A stretch of 64,000 nucleotides of DNA, from assembly GCF_000005505.3 (NCBI RefSeq), contig NC_016133.3:41939237-42003236 (forward strand). Reading direction: 5' to 3'. Below, piece after piece: positions 5,077 to 13,395 of the stretch; the first letter of the stretch is position 1; every line of letters begins with the position of its first letter. This stretch comes from Brachypodium distachyon (Eukaryota; Streptophyta; Magnoliopsida; Poales; Poaceae). The position numbers and the translations under genes were made by a program. The notes beneath the pieces were generated by a model. It made no database searches, was not told the DNA's origin, and saw only the letters and a program-made list of their open reading frames with translations.

Positions 5077-8000
5077 TCATGGATGAACTGGCGCGCGCCA
5101 CCAAAAGCTAACAGAGAAACTAATAGAAAGAGATCTCACATAATGCCACCATTTCGGTGGAATGTAAAGGAGGTCACCTTCCTCCAATATGCTGTCCATG
5201 AATTCAAGACCTTCTGCCCTCGGGAACTCCTTTAGATCAATGTTATCAATATCTACCTGCAGAGACATTGTTTATCCAATAGTCTCATGAAGATCAATGT
5301 TATTCAATTAAGTTTAGTTCCGTAAAAGAAATGATGGAGCACATAGCTTCAGGCCAAGAACAACGTGTATGGCTTGCACAATTACAATGCAAGGTTGAAC
5401 AGGAGGACCAGAAGAAAATCTGGTACCATGGATAGTCAAAAATTGATTACCAAATTTGCTCTACTTTCAGAATCTCAGCATCAAGGTTGCTTGCAGCAGA
5501 TTTCAGAACAAATTTGGGTATGCATGGAACTTTGTAACTGCAGCTTCCGGAAAATAACAAAAGGCAGGTAAAGGAAATAGTTATGTACTACTACAGGTGG
5601 AGGTTTAGCTCCATTTCTTGCTTGTCAATTTTTTTCAATCACATATTTGTCTAGATTGATCTGGAAAATACATCTATTCCGAATATGTAGTTATCTGAAA
5701 GACCACGCACCTGACTAGTATTGCTTAGCATTGTATCCGTGTGAGGGTACAAATCCTCTGAGATGGAAGGGTGATAGAGTCTGATATACTTCCTGCCCAA
5801 GACCTGTCAAGCAGCAACAACCAGAGCATATCAGTTTTGTTTAGAGCCTAAACAAAATCAGTAACTTCTGTTGTCACAATTAGTCAGTGGCTGATTTCAA
5901 TAGAGCTAAAGGAACTGACGCCAGAAACAAACTAACAGTAGCCTAGAATCACAGAATCAGGCATAGGTGTCAACATGCAGAAAAATAAGATTTTTCGTAA
6001 GCTTTAAGTATATTGGTTACACGGGCTCTCGATCTCATTACCCAATTCTTGTACTCCGTAGCATTCATTGTTATACAAGATGGAAAAGAGCAAAGATTTG
6101 AAAGCAGTGGACACAAAGACTAATGACATAAAAACTAAAAAGTAAGAAAAGCAAAAGCAAAAGCATCGAAAAAGAAAAGCAAATGATGCCCCCAGCTCTT
6201 CATCAAAGGCAAGCAAAGAATCCATCGGTGTTGCTTCTTCACCATATTAGCACTCAAGTGCTCTTGCCACTGTCACTTGTATTAATTTCCACACACCTGG
6301 CCTGTTTGCAACAGGGCAATGGCGCTATCGCGTCCGTATTACATCACCGCATTGCTCACTCTATGCGCATGCTCCATGGCGGCGCCGGCCGTCCTTGCTG
6401 CCAACGTGCCGGTGACAACGTGTCGGTCCTTCTGCGGCAACATCACGGTGGACTACCCATTCGCGCTCCGCTCAGGGTGCGGCCACGCGGGGTTACGTGA
6501 CCTGCTCTTCTGCATCAACCGTGTGCTGATGTTACACCTCCCTTCAGGCTCCTACCGCGTCCTCAACATCGACTACGCTTATCAGGGCCTCACTCTGCAC
6601 GATCCGGCCATGTCCGACTGCCGCGCGCTCGACCGCTCCCGGAGCGGGCGCGGCAATGGATTCGTTCTTGAGCCATGGCGAGCCACATTTCTGGCTCCTG
6701 ATCCAGACAACGTGTTCCTCCTTCTGGGCTGCCGCGCCAACTCACCACTCTTCCAGGGCTTCCCTGACCGGCCGCACTTGACATGCCGGAACAACGTGTC
6801 TGGTATGGGGTGTGGGGATTACTATGGCTGCCCGGCTTGGGACGACTACGGTCAGAGGCCATCTGGATCAGCATATGGGTTGGCTGTGCCACCTGAATGC
6901 TGTGCGATGCCATGGGATGCCATCCGGGCAGTGAACGTGAGCCGGCTCCAGTGTGAGGGGTACAGCAGCGCATACAGCCTGGCACCTGTGCGGACGTCGG
7001 AGGGGGCCCGTGGATGGACATATGGTATCCGGGTGGCATGGCAGCTGCCGGAGGCCAACCGGGGGTTCTGTGGTGCGTGCCTTGCCACGGGAGGGGTGTG
7101 TGGTCATGACAGGGACAGTCACGCTGACCTGTGCCTATGCGGGGACTGGAACTCAACCTCCAACTGTGACTCCTCCACAGACGCAGCAACGTCAAGCGCG
7201 GCGGCCATTACAGGCGTGCTTTTCTCTGCCGTTCTTGCCTCAGGTAAATGTCATTAGTTTCCCTGGATCTGGACATGTGCATAATGCAGAGCTACTTTTT
7301 ACGGTGAAGGCATAATTTTATGCATATACCGCAAGATCTCGACTGTAACACGGGGATCGACTAGATTTAAGGCATTGTACAAATCCAAATTGTGACCTAG
7401 TGTCAGGTTTGTCCCTTTCATTTCATTTTCTGATACAGATCGTGTCACTACCTTTGGTGCAGGACTGTCATCTCTCTGGTGGTGAACGATGAATCTGCGT
7501 CTGTGATGGCTTCATGTTATCGAACAGCGATGCCATAGTTACTTCTGGCAAGTTTGTTATACCTTAGGTTGGACAAAAAACAGTATTATAAAATGTCATC
7601 TGTTCATTTCTTACATCTATATATACCGTTACAACTGTTTTGCTATTTGTAAGGCCACTGAGAATTTCTTATATATCAGTCGATGCCAAGAGCAGTCCGA
7701 TCAGCAAAGAAATCCATGCAAATGGTTTGTTTTTGTATTGTGTGATAAGGTGCATAGGCTTTTCCTTGCTCTCTTCTTGTCTTGTGCTGAGTCGCGGGGA
7801 CGCGGGCCACTTGGGATTTGGGCAGTATTCCATTTGATGGGACGCATGGCTTTTTGTGCGTTCCTTTACCATAATGTAGGTTAAGCTGGACCAAAGAATT
7901 CCACGGTACACACGTCTTGTAGATTGGAGCGTGCAACTAATGTAATACCAACAAGCCCCCTCCCTCATTAAGAAAAAACTATGAATAGCATGTGTTTTCA

Positions 8001-11000: not shown

Positions 11001-11738
11001 ACATTCCACTAGTCCAGGCTTCCAGCCAGCGATGCAGTGAATGTTTTGCAGAAAATGTGTTACGTGAGCCACTCGGTCGAACAATCACCAGGCAGCAGCA
11101 TTAGCAACCAACTAGTGTGACCATTGGTACGTTGACACAAAATCCTCCGCAGACCGTAGAACTTCTCGATCTAATTCTATCGAAGCATTTCATGCACCAG
11201 TCTCAAATGAACTCGTAATCCTCACCCGACCAGAGATGAAAACCTAAAACGGTGGCAGCCCAACAGAAATACTCACATCGGCGAGGTTTAAGTTCCTGCC
11301 GAGTCCTTCCGCCCACCTCTCCACGTCACTGCCGGCGTCTCCCGCGCCGTCGCCGTCGCCGTCGGAATCACGGTTTCCGCCGGCGGGGACCAGCGAGATG
11401 GCTTCCTCGAGCTCCGCGCGGAGGAGGTCGCCGCCCATGATGAGGCCCATGTCGAGCGCCCGGAGCGCGCCGCGGCGATCGTCGCCGGCGCGGAGGCCCG
11501 CCACGTGGAGGCACGCGAGCGCGTACGCGTCCCTCCACGCGGGGCCCACCTCCCTCCAGGGCCCCGAGTGCAGCTGCTCCCACGCCATCTCCCGCGCCGC
11601 CTCCGCCGCGCGCAGGTCCCCAGCGGCCGCCTTCTCCGCGGACGCCGCGAACGCGAAGCCCCCCTCCTCCGTGATCTGCCGCAGCAGCGCCGCCCTCTTT
11701 CTCGCGCCCGCGGCCGCCGCCGGCTCGCCGGTGTCCAT
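5077..11738 (-). CDS. JMJ30: JmjC-domain histone demethylase, JMJ30/JMJD5 type
   Basis: Six exons join in frame: 11738-11277, 10119-9910, 9263-9132, 9041-8898, 5803-5711 and 5256-5077, all with GT/AG introns, giving about 406 residues (Arabidopsis JMJ30 is of similar size). The start is the first ATG, at 11738; the codon upstream at 11756 is GTG. The N-terminal 150 residues are Ala/Arg-rich and helical. The cupin core begins in exon 2 ([15 protein letters not shown]). The iron ligands appear to be His306 and Asp308 in [10 protein letters not shown] and His385 in [10 protein letters not shown]. Family members are Fe(II)/2-oxoglutarate oxygenases acting in the nucleus; in Arabidopsis JMJ30 is an evening-phased clock-associated gene linked to H3K36 demethylation. 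Intron 4 (5804-8897) houses an antisense gene. The promoter contains evening-element repeats. The model looks fully functional. Confidence 0.93.
6319..7485 (+). CDS. Secreted WAK/LRK10-like galacturonan-binding protein, probably GPI-anchored, nested in a JMJ30 intron
   Basis: Exon 1 is 6319-7243; a GT/AG intron of 219 bp joins it to a tiny exon 2 (7463-7485) that adds only GLSSLWW and a stop, giving about 315 residues. A signal peptide spans residues 1-27. A GUB_WAK_bind domain follows ([14 protein letters not shown] from about residue 35), then a Cys-rich WAK-associated C-terminal region ([21 protein letters not shown], about 250-280). The end is a hydrophobic tail ([15 protein letters not shown]) with no cytoplasmic kinase, which reads as a GPI-attachment signal. 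Several N-glycosylation sequons occur (NIT, NVS, NST). Such ectodomains are thought to contact pectin in the wall. The frame is intact. The whole gene lies in intron 4 of JMJ30 on the other strand. Exon 2 is inferred from splice sites and the family's short hydrophobic ending; without it the frame would read to 7257. Confidence 0.85.
7486..8897. other. Remainder of JMJ30 intron 4
   Basis: A+T-rich intron sequence between the nested gene and JMJ30 exon 4. It should include the 3'UTR of the nested plus-strand gene. I recognise no transposon ends and no coding sequence. Confidence 0.5.
10120..11276 (-). other. JMJ30 intron 1
   Basis: Bounded by a GTGAGT donor on the minus strand at 11276 and a TTTGTTTCAG acceptor at 10120. 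The short frames inside it match nothing I recognise, and no repeat ends are visible. Confidence 0.7.
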
Positions 11739-11914
11739 CGCCTCCGCTGAGCGCACCCCCCCACCCCCACGCTGGGAAAAAGCGCAAAAGCGGAGGCGCG
11801 GGGGGCGTGTGCCGTTTGGAGAAGGGGAGGAAAGGAGATATTTCCTGTGCGGTCCACCCGGGTGAGGTGGAATAGCGGGATTTTATTCCACGGGAAGAAA
11901 ACAAAAGTGGATTT

Positions 11915-12122
11915 ACGGTTGTGCCCTCGCTCGTAGCCAGTCTTTCAGATATTTTTGAACCAGATATCTGGGCTCGGACGTGAAACGGAGAAGCAACATT
12001 GACGGTTTTGCCCTCCGTCCTCCTAGCCAGACTTCAGATATTTTGTGTGAGCGACTAGGCCCGCTGGTACCAGCAACGTTTTTACGGTTTCGTCCTCGAT
12101 CCTAGTCAGAGTAAGATATTTC
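11915..12122 (-). promoter_or_regulatory. JMJ30 promoter: degenerate tandem repeat, each unit ending in an evening element
   Basis: Three units start with ACGGTT at 11915, 12002 and 12084 (spacing 87 and 82 bp). They share a core of about 43 bp: ACGGTT..TGCCCTC....TAGCCAG..TTCAGATATTTT. Read in the direction of JMJ30 transcription, each ends in an evening element: AAAATATCT at 11947-11955 and 12036-12044, and the 8-base core AAATATCT at 12114-12121. A further palindromic AGATATCT lies at 11962-11969. The elements lie about 200-380 bp upstream of the ATG. Evening elements are bound by CCA1/LHY-type MYB factors, and Arabidopsis JMJ30 is a known target, so a clock-control role is a well-founded inference. 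Confidence 0.7.
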
Positions 12123-13005
12123 AGAGAACTCTATCCCGATCGCCCCAAACCTCCTCCCCTCTCTTCCCCTCCCTACTGTTCACAGAGAAATCCCTAAATT
12201 TTGTCTGGAGCCCGGCCCGATCCCGTAACCTTTCCGCCTGCGAGGCTGGTCGGAAAGGGGATGGCTCGCCGGCGGAAAGGGATGGGGGAGGTGCTCGGAG
12301 CTCCGAAGTTGCTAGGTTCCCCTTAGGGGTAGTCGGCTTAATGCCGGGGTGTGGCGTAATGCCGTTAGGAAGATGGCCGTGTCTGAGTTCGAGCATAAGC
12401 CGGCGGCGTTCGGCGGCGGCGGTTCCCGTGGTGGCCAGTGGGTGGCTGACGCGGAGATGGTCGCCGGCGACATCTCAAATAAGCTCGAAGTCCCTTCTTT
12501 GCAGGGGATTTGTTTGCCTTCTCCTTACTGTTGGAGTCATCATGGAGATGGCTCTCTGGCGAGGAGATGGCGGCGGATTGGAGCAACCACTCCAAGGTCG
12601 AGCACATCAGCGACGGTTTCCGTGGAGGAGATTCGGCGCCATCAGCTCGTTGCCGGCTCACACCGTGTCGTTGCATCCTCAGGCCGAAGGGCGGCCATAT
12701 CAATTCCTCCTAGCCATGGTGCAGAATAGGAGGCAGATCTACATCCATCTGGTGGCCATGGTTACTTGCTGTGGCAGCTTCGTCGTCCCAAGTGGCGTAG
12801 TCCCCGGCGATGGCGAAGAGATCACCGGCGAGGTGTGGTTTAGGACCCGATTGCGTTTTTCCTTTCCTGATTTGGGTCCTTTCTGCAAAGTCTAGGGACT
12901 TGTGTGTAATTTTAGATCTTCAGTGGGTTTGGTTGTAATCTGTGTGTTGTTCTCTACTAATAAATAAATATGGGATCCTTCTGGATCCTGCTTTTACAAA
13001 AAAAA
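12123..13005 (+). mobile_element. Retroposon (LINE-derived or non-autonomous) with poly-A tail and 15-bp target duplication
   Basis: The 15-mer AGAGTAAGATATTTC flanks the segment perfectly: 12108-12122 on the left, and 13006-13020 directly after a run of about nine A. The 883-bp insert thus has the three marks of target-primed reverse transcription: no terminal repeats, a 3' A-tail and a long target duplication. The last part, before the tail, contains AATAAATAAATA. Two overlapping plus-strand frames (12341-12895, 12349-12729) show no domain I recognise and are probably not genes. It may be a 5'-truncated L1-type LINE or a retroposed transcript. Confidence 0.8.
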
Positions 13006-13011
13006 AGAGTA

Positions 13012-13038
13012 AGATATTTCGAAGCAGTAAGATATTTT
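13012..13038 (-). promoter_or_regulatory. Two evening elements displaced upstream by the retroposon
   Basis: AAATATCT (minus strand, 13012-13019, inside the right target duplication) and AAAATATCT (13030-13038). Before the insertion they would have lain next to the copy at 12114-12122, at the end of the third promoter repeat. They are now about 1.26-1.3 kb from the JMJ30 ATG. Confidence 0.6.
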
Positions 13039-13395
13039 GTTTGAGTGGATGATTTCCAGTGGGAGCGCATGCCATAAAGAGAAAGTCTACAGAAACGGGT
13101 TTGTGATGCCCCTGCCCTCTCCAAGAACGGCAACGTTGGCAATCGGCTTTTGGCGATCAGCGATCTGCTTCCTTGTCTCGTCACGCGTGCATGGCTGCAC
13201 GTACACCCCGTTGGCCGTTGCTATGTTGTTGACGTCACTGGAAGCCGTGAACGACCACTGGTACAAAATAAGCCATACGCGACCTCTATCAGTGGAGGGT
13301 CCCTAAAACCCGCCACTGATGGGCCACTGATGACCGCCCATCAGTGGCGGGTAAAAAAAAACGTCACTGATGGCCTCCTCATGAAACTCGAAAAA

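What the first reader, a model, noticed from the sequence alone, without database searches (positions are those of the whole stretch)
11915..13038. Tandem promoter repeats each carrying an evening element at JMJ30
Seen: three units (11915, 12002, 12084) share a core of about 43 bp, each ending in AAAATATCT or AAATATCT on the JMJ30 strand; with the displaced copies there are five (11947, 12036, 12114, 13012, 13030). Known: evening elements are CCA1/LHY targets, and Arabidopsis JMJ30 is evening-phased and clock-linked. Inference: this grass copy amplified its clock-response site by local tandem duplication, so dosage of the site may tune amplitude. The spacing (87, 82 bp) is near eight helical turns.
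Basis: partly seen in the sequence, partly recalled or inferred. Interest (0 to 1): 0.75.

Follow-up and report, generated by a model that had tools for sequence, protein, structure and literature searches.

The report
Repeated clock sites before grass JMJ30
A clock-linked grass gene carries a cluster of evening clock-binding motifs in its promoter, most of them apparently made by old local duplication, but one of the counted copies is a scar left by a jumping element that landed in the cluster and split it.

Summary
Upstream of a JMJ30/KDM8-type gene (minus strand, ATG at 11738) lie six AAATATCT cores, all on the gene's strand. Three diverged units align over 45-52 columns, sharing ACGGTT, CCTC and TAGYCAG boxes plus the element. 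The unit was found at this locus only in the 271-Mb genome. A same-strand triple of the core at 60-90 bp gaps occurs once genome-wide, here.

The main correction is origin. The 883 bp at 12123-13005 are a poly(A)-ended retroposon of a dispersed family (44 match rows, its own included), flanked by a 15-bp target-site duplication, AGAGTAAGATATTTC, that contains the core. So the 12114/13012 pair is one site copied by insertion, and the 13030 element was pushed from about 395 to about 1,290 bp upstream. Before insertion there were five cores: 11836, one each in units 1 and 2, and two 18 bp apart in unit 3. Helical phasing fails for core-to-core distances.

Most likely these are CCA1/LHY-type sites giving late-day expression, as in Arabidopsis. 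Binding, rhythm and dosage are untested here.

The parts
11277..11738 (-). First coding exon of the JMJ30/JMJD5/KDM8 gene; ATG at 11738-11736, donor GT follows 11277
   Evidence: Pfam ARM_KDM8_N E=1.7e-49; splice context; best named relative a DM8-domain protein of Aegilops tauschii, 80% identity
5080..10119 (-). Span of later JMJ30 exons (approximate pieces 10119-9910, 9264-9128, 9041-8898, about 5803-5711, about 5271-5080) giving the cupin/JmjC domain; exact ends of the last two not settled
   Evidence: Cupin_8 on three pieces (29.1, 26.8 and 58.3 bits, cut-off 27.4) and JmjC_2 on the last; none on 5711-5806; junction context
11836..11843 (-).
11911..11955 (-). Unit 1: ACGGTT / CCTC / TAGCCAG boxes plus evening element AAAATATCT (11947-11955)
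11998..12044 (-). Unit 2, with evening element AAAATATCT (12036-12044)
12081..12122 (-). Unit 3, gene-proximal part, with AAATATCT at 12114-12121; its last 15 bp (12108-12122) are one copy of the target-site duplication
12123..13005 (+). 883-bp poly(A)-ended retroposon inserted inside unit 3, taken as non-autonomous; no AAATATCT inside it
   Evidence: 44 match rows in the genome, own place included; no Pfam family in the 278-aa ORF that overlaps it; no core inside
13006..13020 (.). Second copy of the 15-bp target-site duplication AGAGTAAGATATTTC (its first A is also the last of the A run, so 14 or 15 bp); holds the 13012 core
   Evidence: identical to 12108-12122; flanking repeats in other copies
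13021..13045 (-). Displaced distal end of unit 3 with full evening element AAAATATCT (13030-13038); 13030-13045 matches 12036-12051 of unit 2 at 94% over 16 nt

Best explanation
This is a homotypic cluster of evening elements in the promoter of a grass JMJ30 gene. An ancestral module (ACGGTT box, CCTC, TAGYCAG, evening element) was locally copied to three units, and an 18-bp step doubled the site in unit 3. Later a poly(A) retroposon inserted, most likely by target-primed reverse transcription, inside unit 3. It duplicated 15 bp holding one core and pushed the most distal evening element about 0.9 kb away. The sites most likely bind dawn-phased CCA1/LHY-type MYB repressors (and possibly RVE activators, from general knowledge), so the gene is held down in the morning and peaks late in the day, as in Arabidopsis. 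Shown here: the units, that the search found them at one locus only, and the retroposon with its duplication. Inferred from structure: the order of events. Inferred from other plants: binding and phase. Conjecture: an effect of copy number.
For: Unit alignments exceed all 1000 shuffles for each of three pairs. The core is invariant in 8 of 8 columns across three units, against 22 of 38 columns in the rest of the unit core and 0 of 21 or 3 of 43 beyond it. The unit was found once; the triple occurs once in the genome. Retroposon: 44 family rows, A run, identical 15-bp flanks. Of 20 copies examined (this one included), 9 have exact flanking repeats of 12 bp or more, against 0 of 380 mismatched-flank controls (maximum 11). 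Passages of papers: Arabidopsis JMJ30 peaks in the evening and LHY binds its promoter (PMC6362098); [quoted passage not shown] direct repression also in PMC6266252); wheat CCA1 binds evening-element-like sites by DAP-seq (PMC9340162); AAATATCT is enriched in one diurnal cluster of panicoid grasses (PMC7315539) and at evening/dusk in rice (PMC9823482); a soybean JMJ-like gene is strongly diurnal (PMC3903518); sugarcane JMJD5.1 has phase ZT10 in the two internode samples where it is expressed (PMC7162945).
Against: No expression, chromatin or binding data for this gene. No related grass promoter could be fetched, so conservation is untested. The ACGGTT, CCTC and TAGYCAG boxes are also largely kept, so the element is not the only conserved part. 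Three units are few for a test of constraint, and spacers between them do not align. The shuffle test treats duplicates as independent. The element with its near flank (TTCAGATATTTTNNG) is not rare: 33 places in the genome against 11 in the reversed control; only the array is unique. The genome search gives lower bounds. One review passage gives the Arabidopsis peak as 2 h after midday instead of evening.
Confidence: 0.75

Rival explanations
1. The units are an ordinary short local duplication kept by neutral drift; the evening elements are along for the ride and only one or two sites matter.
For: The units are diverged, and other boxes are kept too (22 of 38 columns outside the element invariant); repeats in promoters are common (general knowledge).
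Against: The core is invariant in all three units and in the 18-bp second copy, and a further core lies outside the units at 11836, in a gene whose Arabidopsis counterpart is a CCA1/LHY target.
Confidence: 0.3
2. All five copies arose by tandem duplication and the 883 bp is unrelated intergenic sequence.
For: Five cores are seen at the stated places.
Against: The 883 bp belong to a dispersed family with A-rich 3' ends and target-site duplications, and the 15-bp flanks are exact and abut the insert.
Confidence: 0.02
3. The conserved thing is the whole composite module, with ACGGTT/TAGYCAG as a main regulatory site for another factor and the evening element as a partner.
For: ACGGTT, CCTC and TAG.CAG are shared by all three units; the 14-mer ACGGTTTTGCCCTC has 3 sites in the genome, close to the 2 of its reversed control, so it is not a common repeat.
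Against: No factor was matched to these boxes here; common descent of the units explains the sharing without function.
Confidence: 0.2

Closest known systems
Arabidopsis JMJ30/JMJD5 promoter, repressed by CCA1 and LHY
   Same: Same type of gene (KDM8 N-terminal ARM plus cupin/JmjC); CCA1/LHY act on its promoter according to review passages
   Different: Here the sites sit in three units and are split by a retroposon; the Arabidopsis promoter sequence was not compared (primary papers not held)
Evening-element promoters of clock genes such as TOC1
   Same: AAAATATCT-type sites upstream of a gene expected to be evening-phased
L1-type poly(A) retroposon insertion with target-site duplication
   Same: A run at the 3' end, 15-bp target-site duplication, dispersed copies with variable 5' ends
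   Different: The duplicated target contains a transcription-factor core, so insertion added one site and moved another; no coding domain found in the one ORF scanned, so taken as non-autonomous

Membership tests
JMJ30/JMJD5/KDM8 gene | KDM8-type N-terminal ARM region | tested here: met
   PF24472 E=1.7e-49, 167.4 bits against cut-off 27
JMJ30/JMJD5/KDM8 gene | Cupin_8/JmjC domain with Fe(II) ligands | tested here: met
   Cupin_8 on three of four exon pieces scanned, one (26.8 bits) just under the 27.4 cut-off; JmjC_2 36.6 bits on the last, JmjC 21 bits under its cut-off of 24; one piece also had a sub-threshold 7tm_4 match taken as chance. HHD and WWH residues are read; their ligand roles are recalled
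Evening element promoter | AAAATATCT or AAATATCT upstream of the gene | tested here: met
   Three 9-mers and three further 8-mers within about 1.3 kb of the ATG
Evening element promoter | Binding by CCA1/LHY/RVE proteins | not testable with these tools
   No ChIP or DAP-seq data at hand for this genome
Evening element promoter | Evening-phased transcript | not testable with these tools
   No expression data; only sugarcane, soybean and Arabidopsis statements in paper passages
Target-primed (L1-type) retroposon | 3' poly(A) and target-site duplication | tested here: met
   Run of nine A (12998-13006, the last shared with the duplication) and 15-bp exact flanks; 9 of 20 copies with flanks of 12 bp or more versus 0 of 380 controls
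Target-primed (L1-type) retroposon | Dispersed family | tested here: met
   44 match rows on five large contigs, 66-100% identity, own place and split pieces included
Target-primed (L1-type) retroposon | Autonomous partner encoding reverse transcriptase | not tested
   Not searched

The most novel reading that the evidence does not exclude
A retroposon target-site duplication added a clock-site copy to a locally amplified evening-element array and moved another out to 1.3 kb, so accessions with and without the insertion would form a natural allelic series in which evening-element number and spacing set JMJ30 amplitude or phase.
Probability: 0.12. Interest if true: 0.65.

Novelty: new variant of a known kind. 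Interest (0 to 1): 0.4.

Why it matters
Whether the number of clock sites in a promoter tunes rhythm amplitude is hard to test in nature. An array unique in its genome and built in ordered steps (local units, an 18-bp doubling, then a retroposon that both copied and displaced sites; the order is inferred, not dated), in front of a gene that in Arabidopsis feeds back on the clock, would give a natural test if the insertion is polymorphic. If not, it is still a clear case of how site clusters grow and are broken up.

Tried and rejected
Rejected: five duplication-derived copies (12114/13012 are target-site duplication halves); unit as a dispersed repeat (the 14-mer box gave 3 sites, with 2 in the reversed control); evening elements brought in by the retroposon (none inside it); helical phasing. 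Other clock motifs scanned in 11741-13260 (names recalled): CBS, CACGTG, CACATG, telo-box, GATACG and GGNCCCAC/GTGGNCCC absent; GATWCG once and CCACAC twice, all three inside the retroposon; one TGGGCY and two ACGTG. No TATA or CCAAT in 11741-12122 on the gene strand.

Led nowhere: PDB search with exon 1 (none); bacterial promoter scan (not relevant to a plant); Tandem Repeats Finder did not report the units. The two primary Arabidopsis papers are not held. Paper listings for JMJ30 or JMJD5 with evening element, JMJ30 with Brachypodium, evening element with Brachypodium (20 of 24 listed; 39), evening-element copies and amplitude, transposon duplications (10 of 369 listed) and JMJ30 in grasses (12 of 23 listed) showed no title or abstract start about this promoter. 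The papers opened were read only as passages.

Full report
Setting. The window lies at C4:41939237-42003236 of an unnamed 271.3-Mb genome. The gene on the minus strand has an exon at 11277-11738 with a KDM8-type N-terminal ARM region and later exons, of which three of four pieces scanned match Cupin_8, one just under the cut-off, with splice-like junctions at several but not all of the ends that I chose. It is a JMJ30/JMJD5-type gene; the best named relative of exon 1 is from Aegilops tauschii at 80% identity. Whether the genome holds a paralog did not complete.

What is there. The promoter region 11741-13260 holds six AAATATCT cores, all on the gene's strand: 11836, 11947, 12036, 12114, 13012 and 13030; three extend to AAAATATCT (11947, 12036, 13030). 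The whole window has ten cores on both strands against a shuffle mean of 2.54, largest 7 of 100 shuffles; four lie outside this region.

The units. Three stretches share TTNACGGTT, CCTC, and TC.TAG.CAG, followed on the plus strand by AGATATTT. Pairwise local scores of 51, 31 and 30 were not reached in 1000 shuffles each (maxima 21, 26, 28). In the three-way alignment the core is invariant in 8 of 8 columns; 22 of 38 columns of the rest of the unit core are invariant; beyond the element similarity is lost (0 of 21, or 3 of 43 with the distal site in register). Tandem Repeats Finder did not report them. The 223 bp 11900-12122 match only themselves in the genome (one candidate scored; the tool warns that its counts are lower bounds), and the box pattern matches once, with none in the reversed control. 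A triple of same-strand cores with gaps of 60-90 bp occurs once in the genome, here, with none in the reversed control; from the window's background rate about 0.02 would be expected (a rough estimate from four sites). The single element with its near flank is not special: TTCAGATATTTTNNG has 33 places against 11 in the reversed control.

The insert. Positions 12108-12122 and 13006-13020 are the same 15 bases, AGAGTAAGATATTTC. Between them lie 883 bp that end in a run of A; the run is nine bases, 12998-13006, the last being also the first base of the duplication, so the duplication is 14 or 15 bp. This stretch has 44 match rows genome-wide at 66-100% identity, its own place and some split pieces of one copy included; the nearest other is 92% over query positions 29-836. 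I examined the 20 of 44 rows that were given loci: 9 of 20, this one included, show exact flanking repeats of 12 bp or more, against 0 of 380 comparisons of one copy's 3' flank with another's 5' flank (longest 11). The other 11 of 20 had 4 to 11 bp, which the controls also reach; 3 of 20 had no A run of six or more found by the script. So the 883 bp are best read as a retroposon inserted by the L1 type of mechanism, and the 12114/13012 pair of cores as one pre-existing site copied by the insertion. The insert holds no core of its own. In one search no other row begins before query position 28, so the first 27 bases here are extra 5' sequence of unclear origin.

The promoter before insertion. 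Removing the insert and one copy of the duplication puts cores 95, 206, 295, 373 and 391 bp from the start of the promoter segment at 11741. Unit 3 then has two sites 18 bp apart, the distal one a full evening element; 13030-13045 matches 12036-12051 of unit 2 at 94% over 16 nt. Today that element starts at 13030, about 1.29 kb from the ATG.

How it most likely works. [quoted passage not shown] one passage instead gives a peak 2 h after midday). In grasses, wheat CCA1 binds evening-element-like sites in vitro, AAATATCT is enriched in one diurnal cluster of panicoid grasses and at evening/dusk in rice, and of two sugarcane JMJD5 genes one has phase ZT10 in the two internode samples where it is expressed and the other is rhythmic in all organs. 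So the inference that these sites are CCA1/LHY-type targets is reasonable. That site number sets amplitude is a guess. That the array was kept by selection is suggested weakly by the invariant core and not shown.

Verdict. A real homotypic cluster, unique in this genome as far as the searches reach, in the expected gene, with its history misread in one important respect: the count of five mixes local units, a short doubling and a retroposon scar. Evening elements at JMJ30-type genes fit what is known; the repeat-unit architecture and its interruption are the new part. The listings showed no paper on this promoter, which is a limited search of open-licence papers by title and abstract start.

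Noticed in passing
13256-13352: CACTA-like terminus CACTGGTACAAAATA (resemblance recalled; position) followed by a perfect 17-bp inverted repeat (13308-13324/13336-13352); the JMJ30 promoter seems bounded by a DNA transposon on its distal side. The other end was not found in the window by three exact motif searches.
   Followed up: partly
6286-7254 (+): A 323-aa plus-strand ORF with a wall-associated-kinase galacturonan-binding domain (GUB_WAK_bind) lies between JMJ30 exon pieces, on the opposite strand, apparently inside a large intron.
   Followed up: partly
12123-12149: The first 27 bp at the retroposon's 5' end have no counterpart in the other 43 match rows, which start at query position 28 or later; L012 also shows private bases between its duplication and the element.
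   Followed up: partly
11960-11971: A short palindrome CCAGATATCTGG sits just distal to the unit 1 evening element, giving GATATCT on both strands; it is not an AAATATCT core.
   Followed up: no
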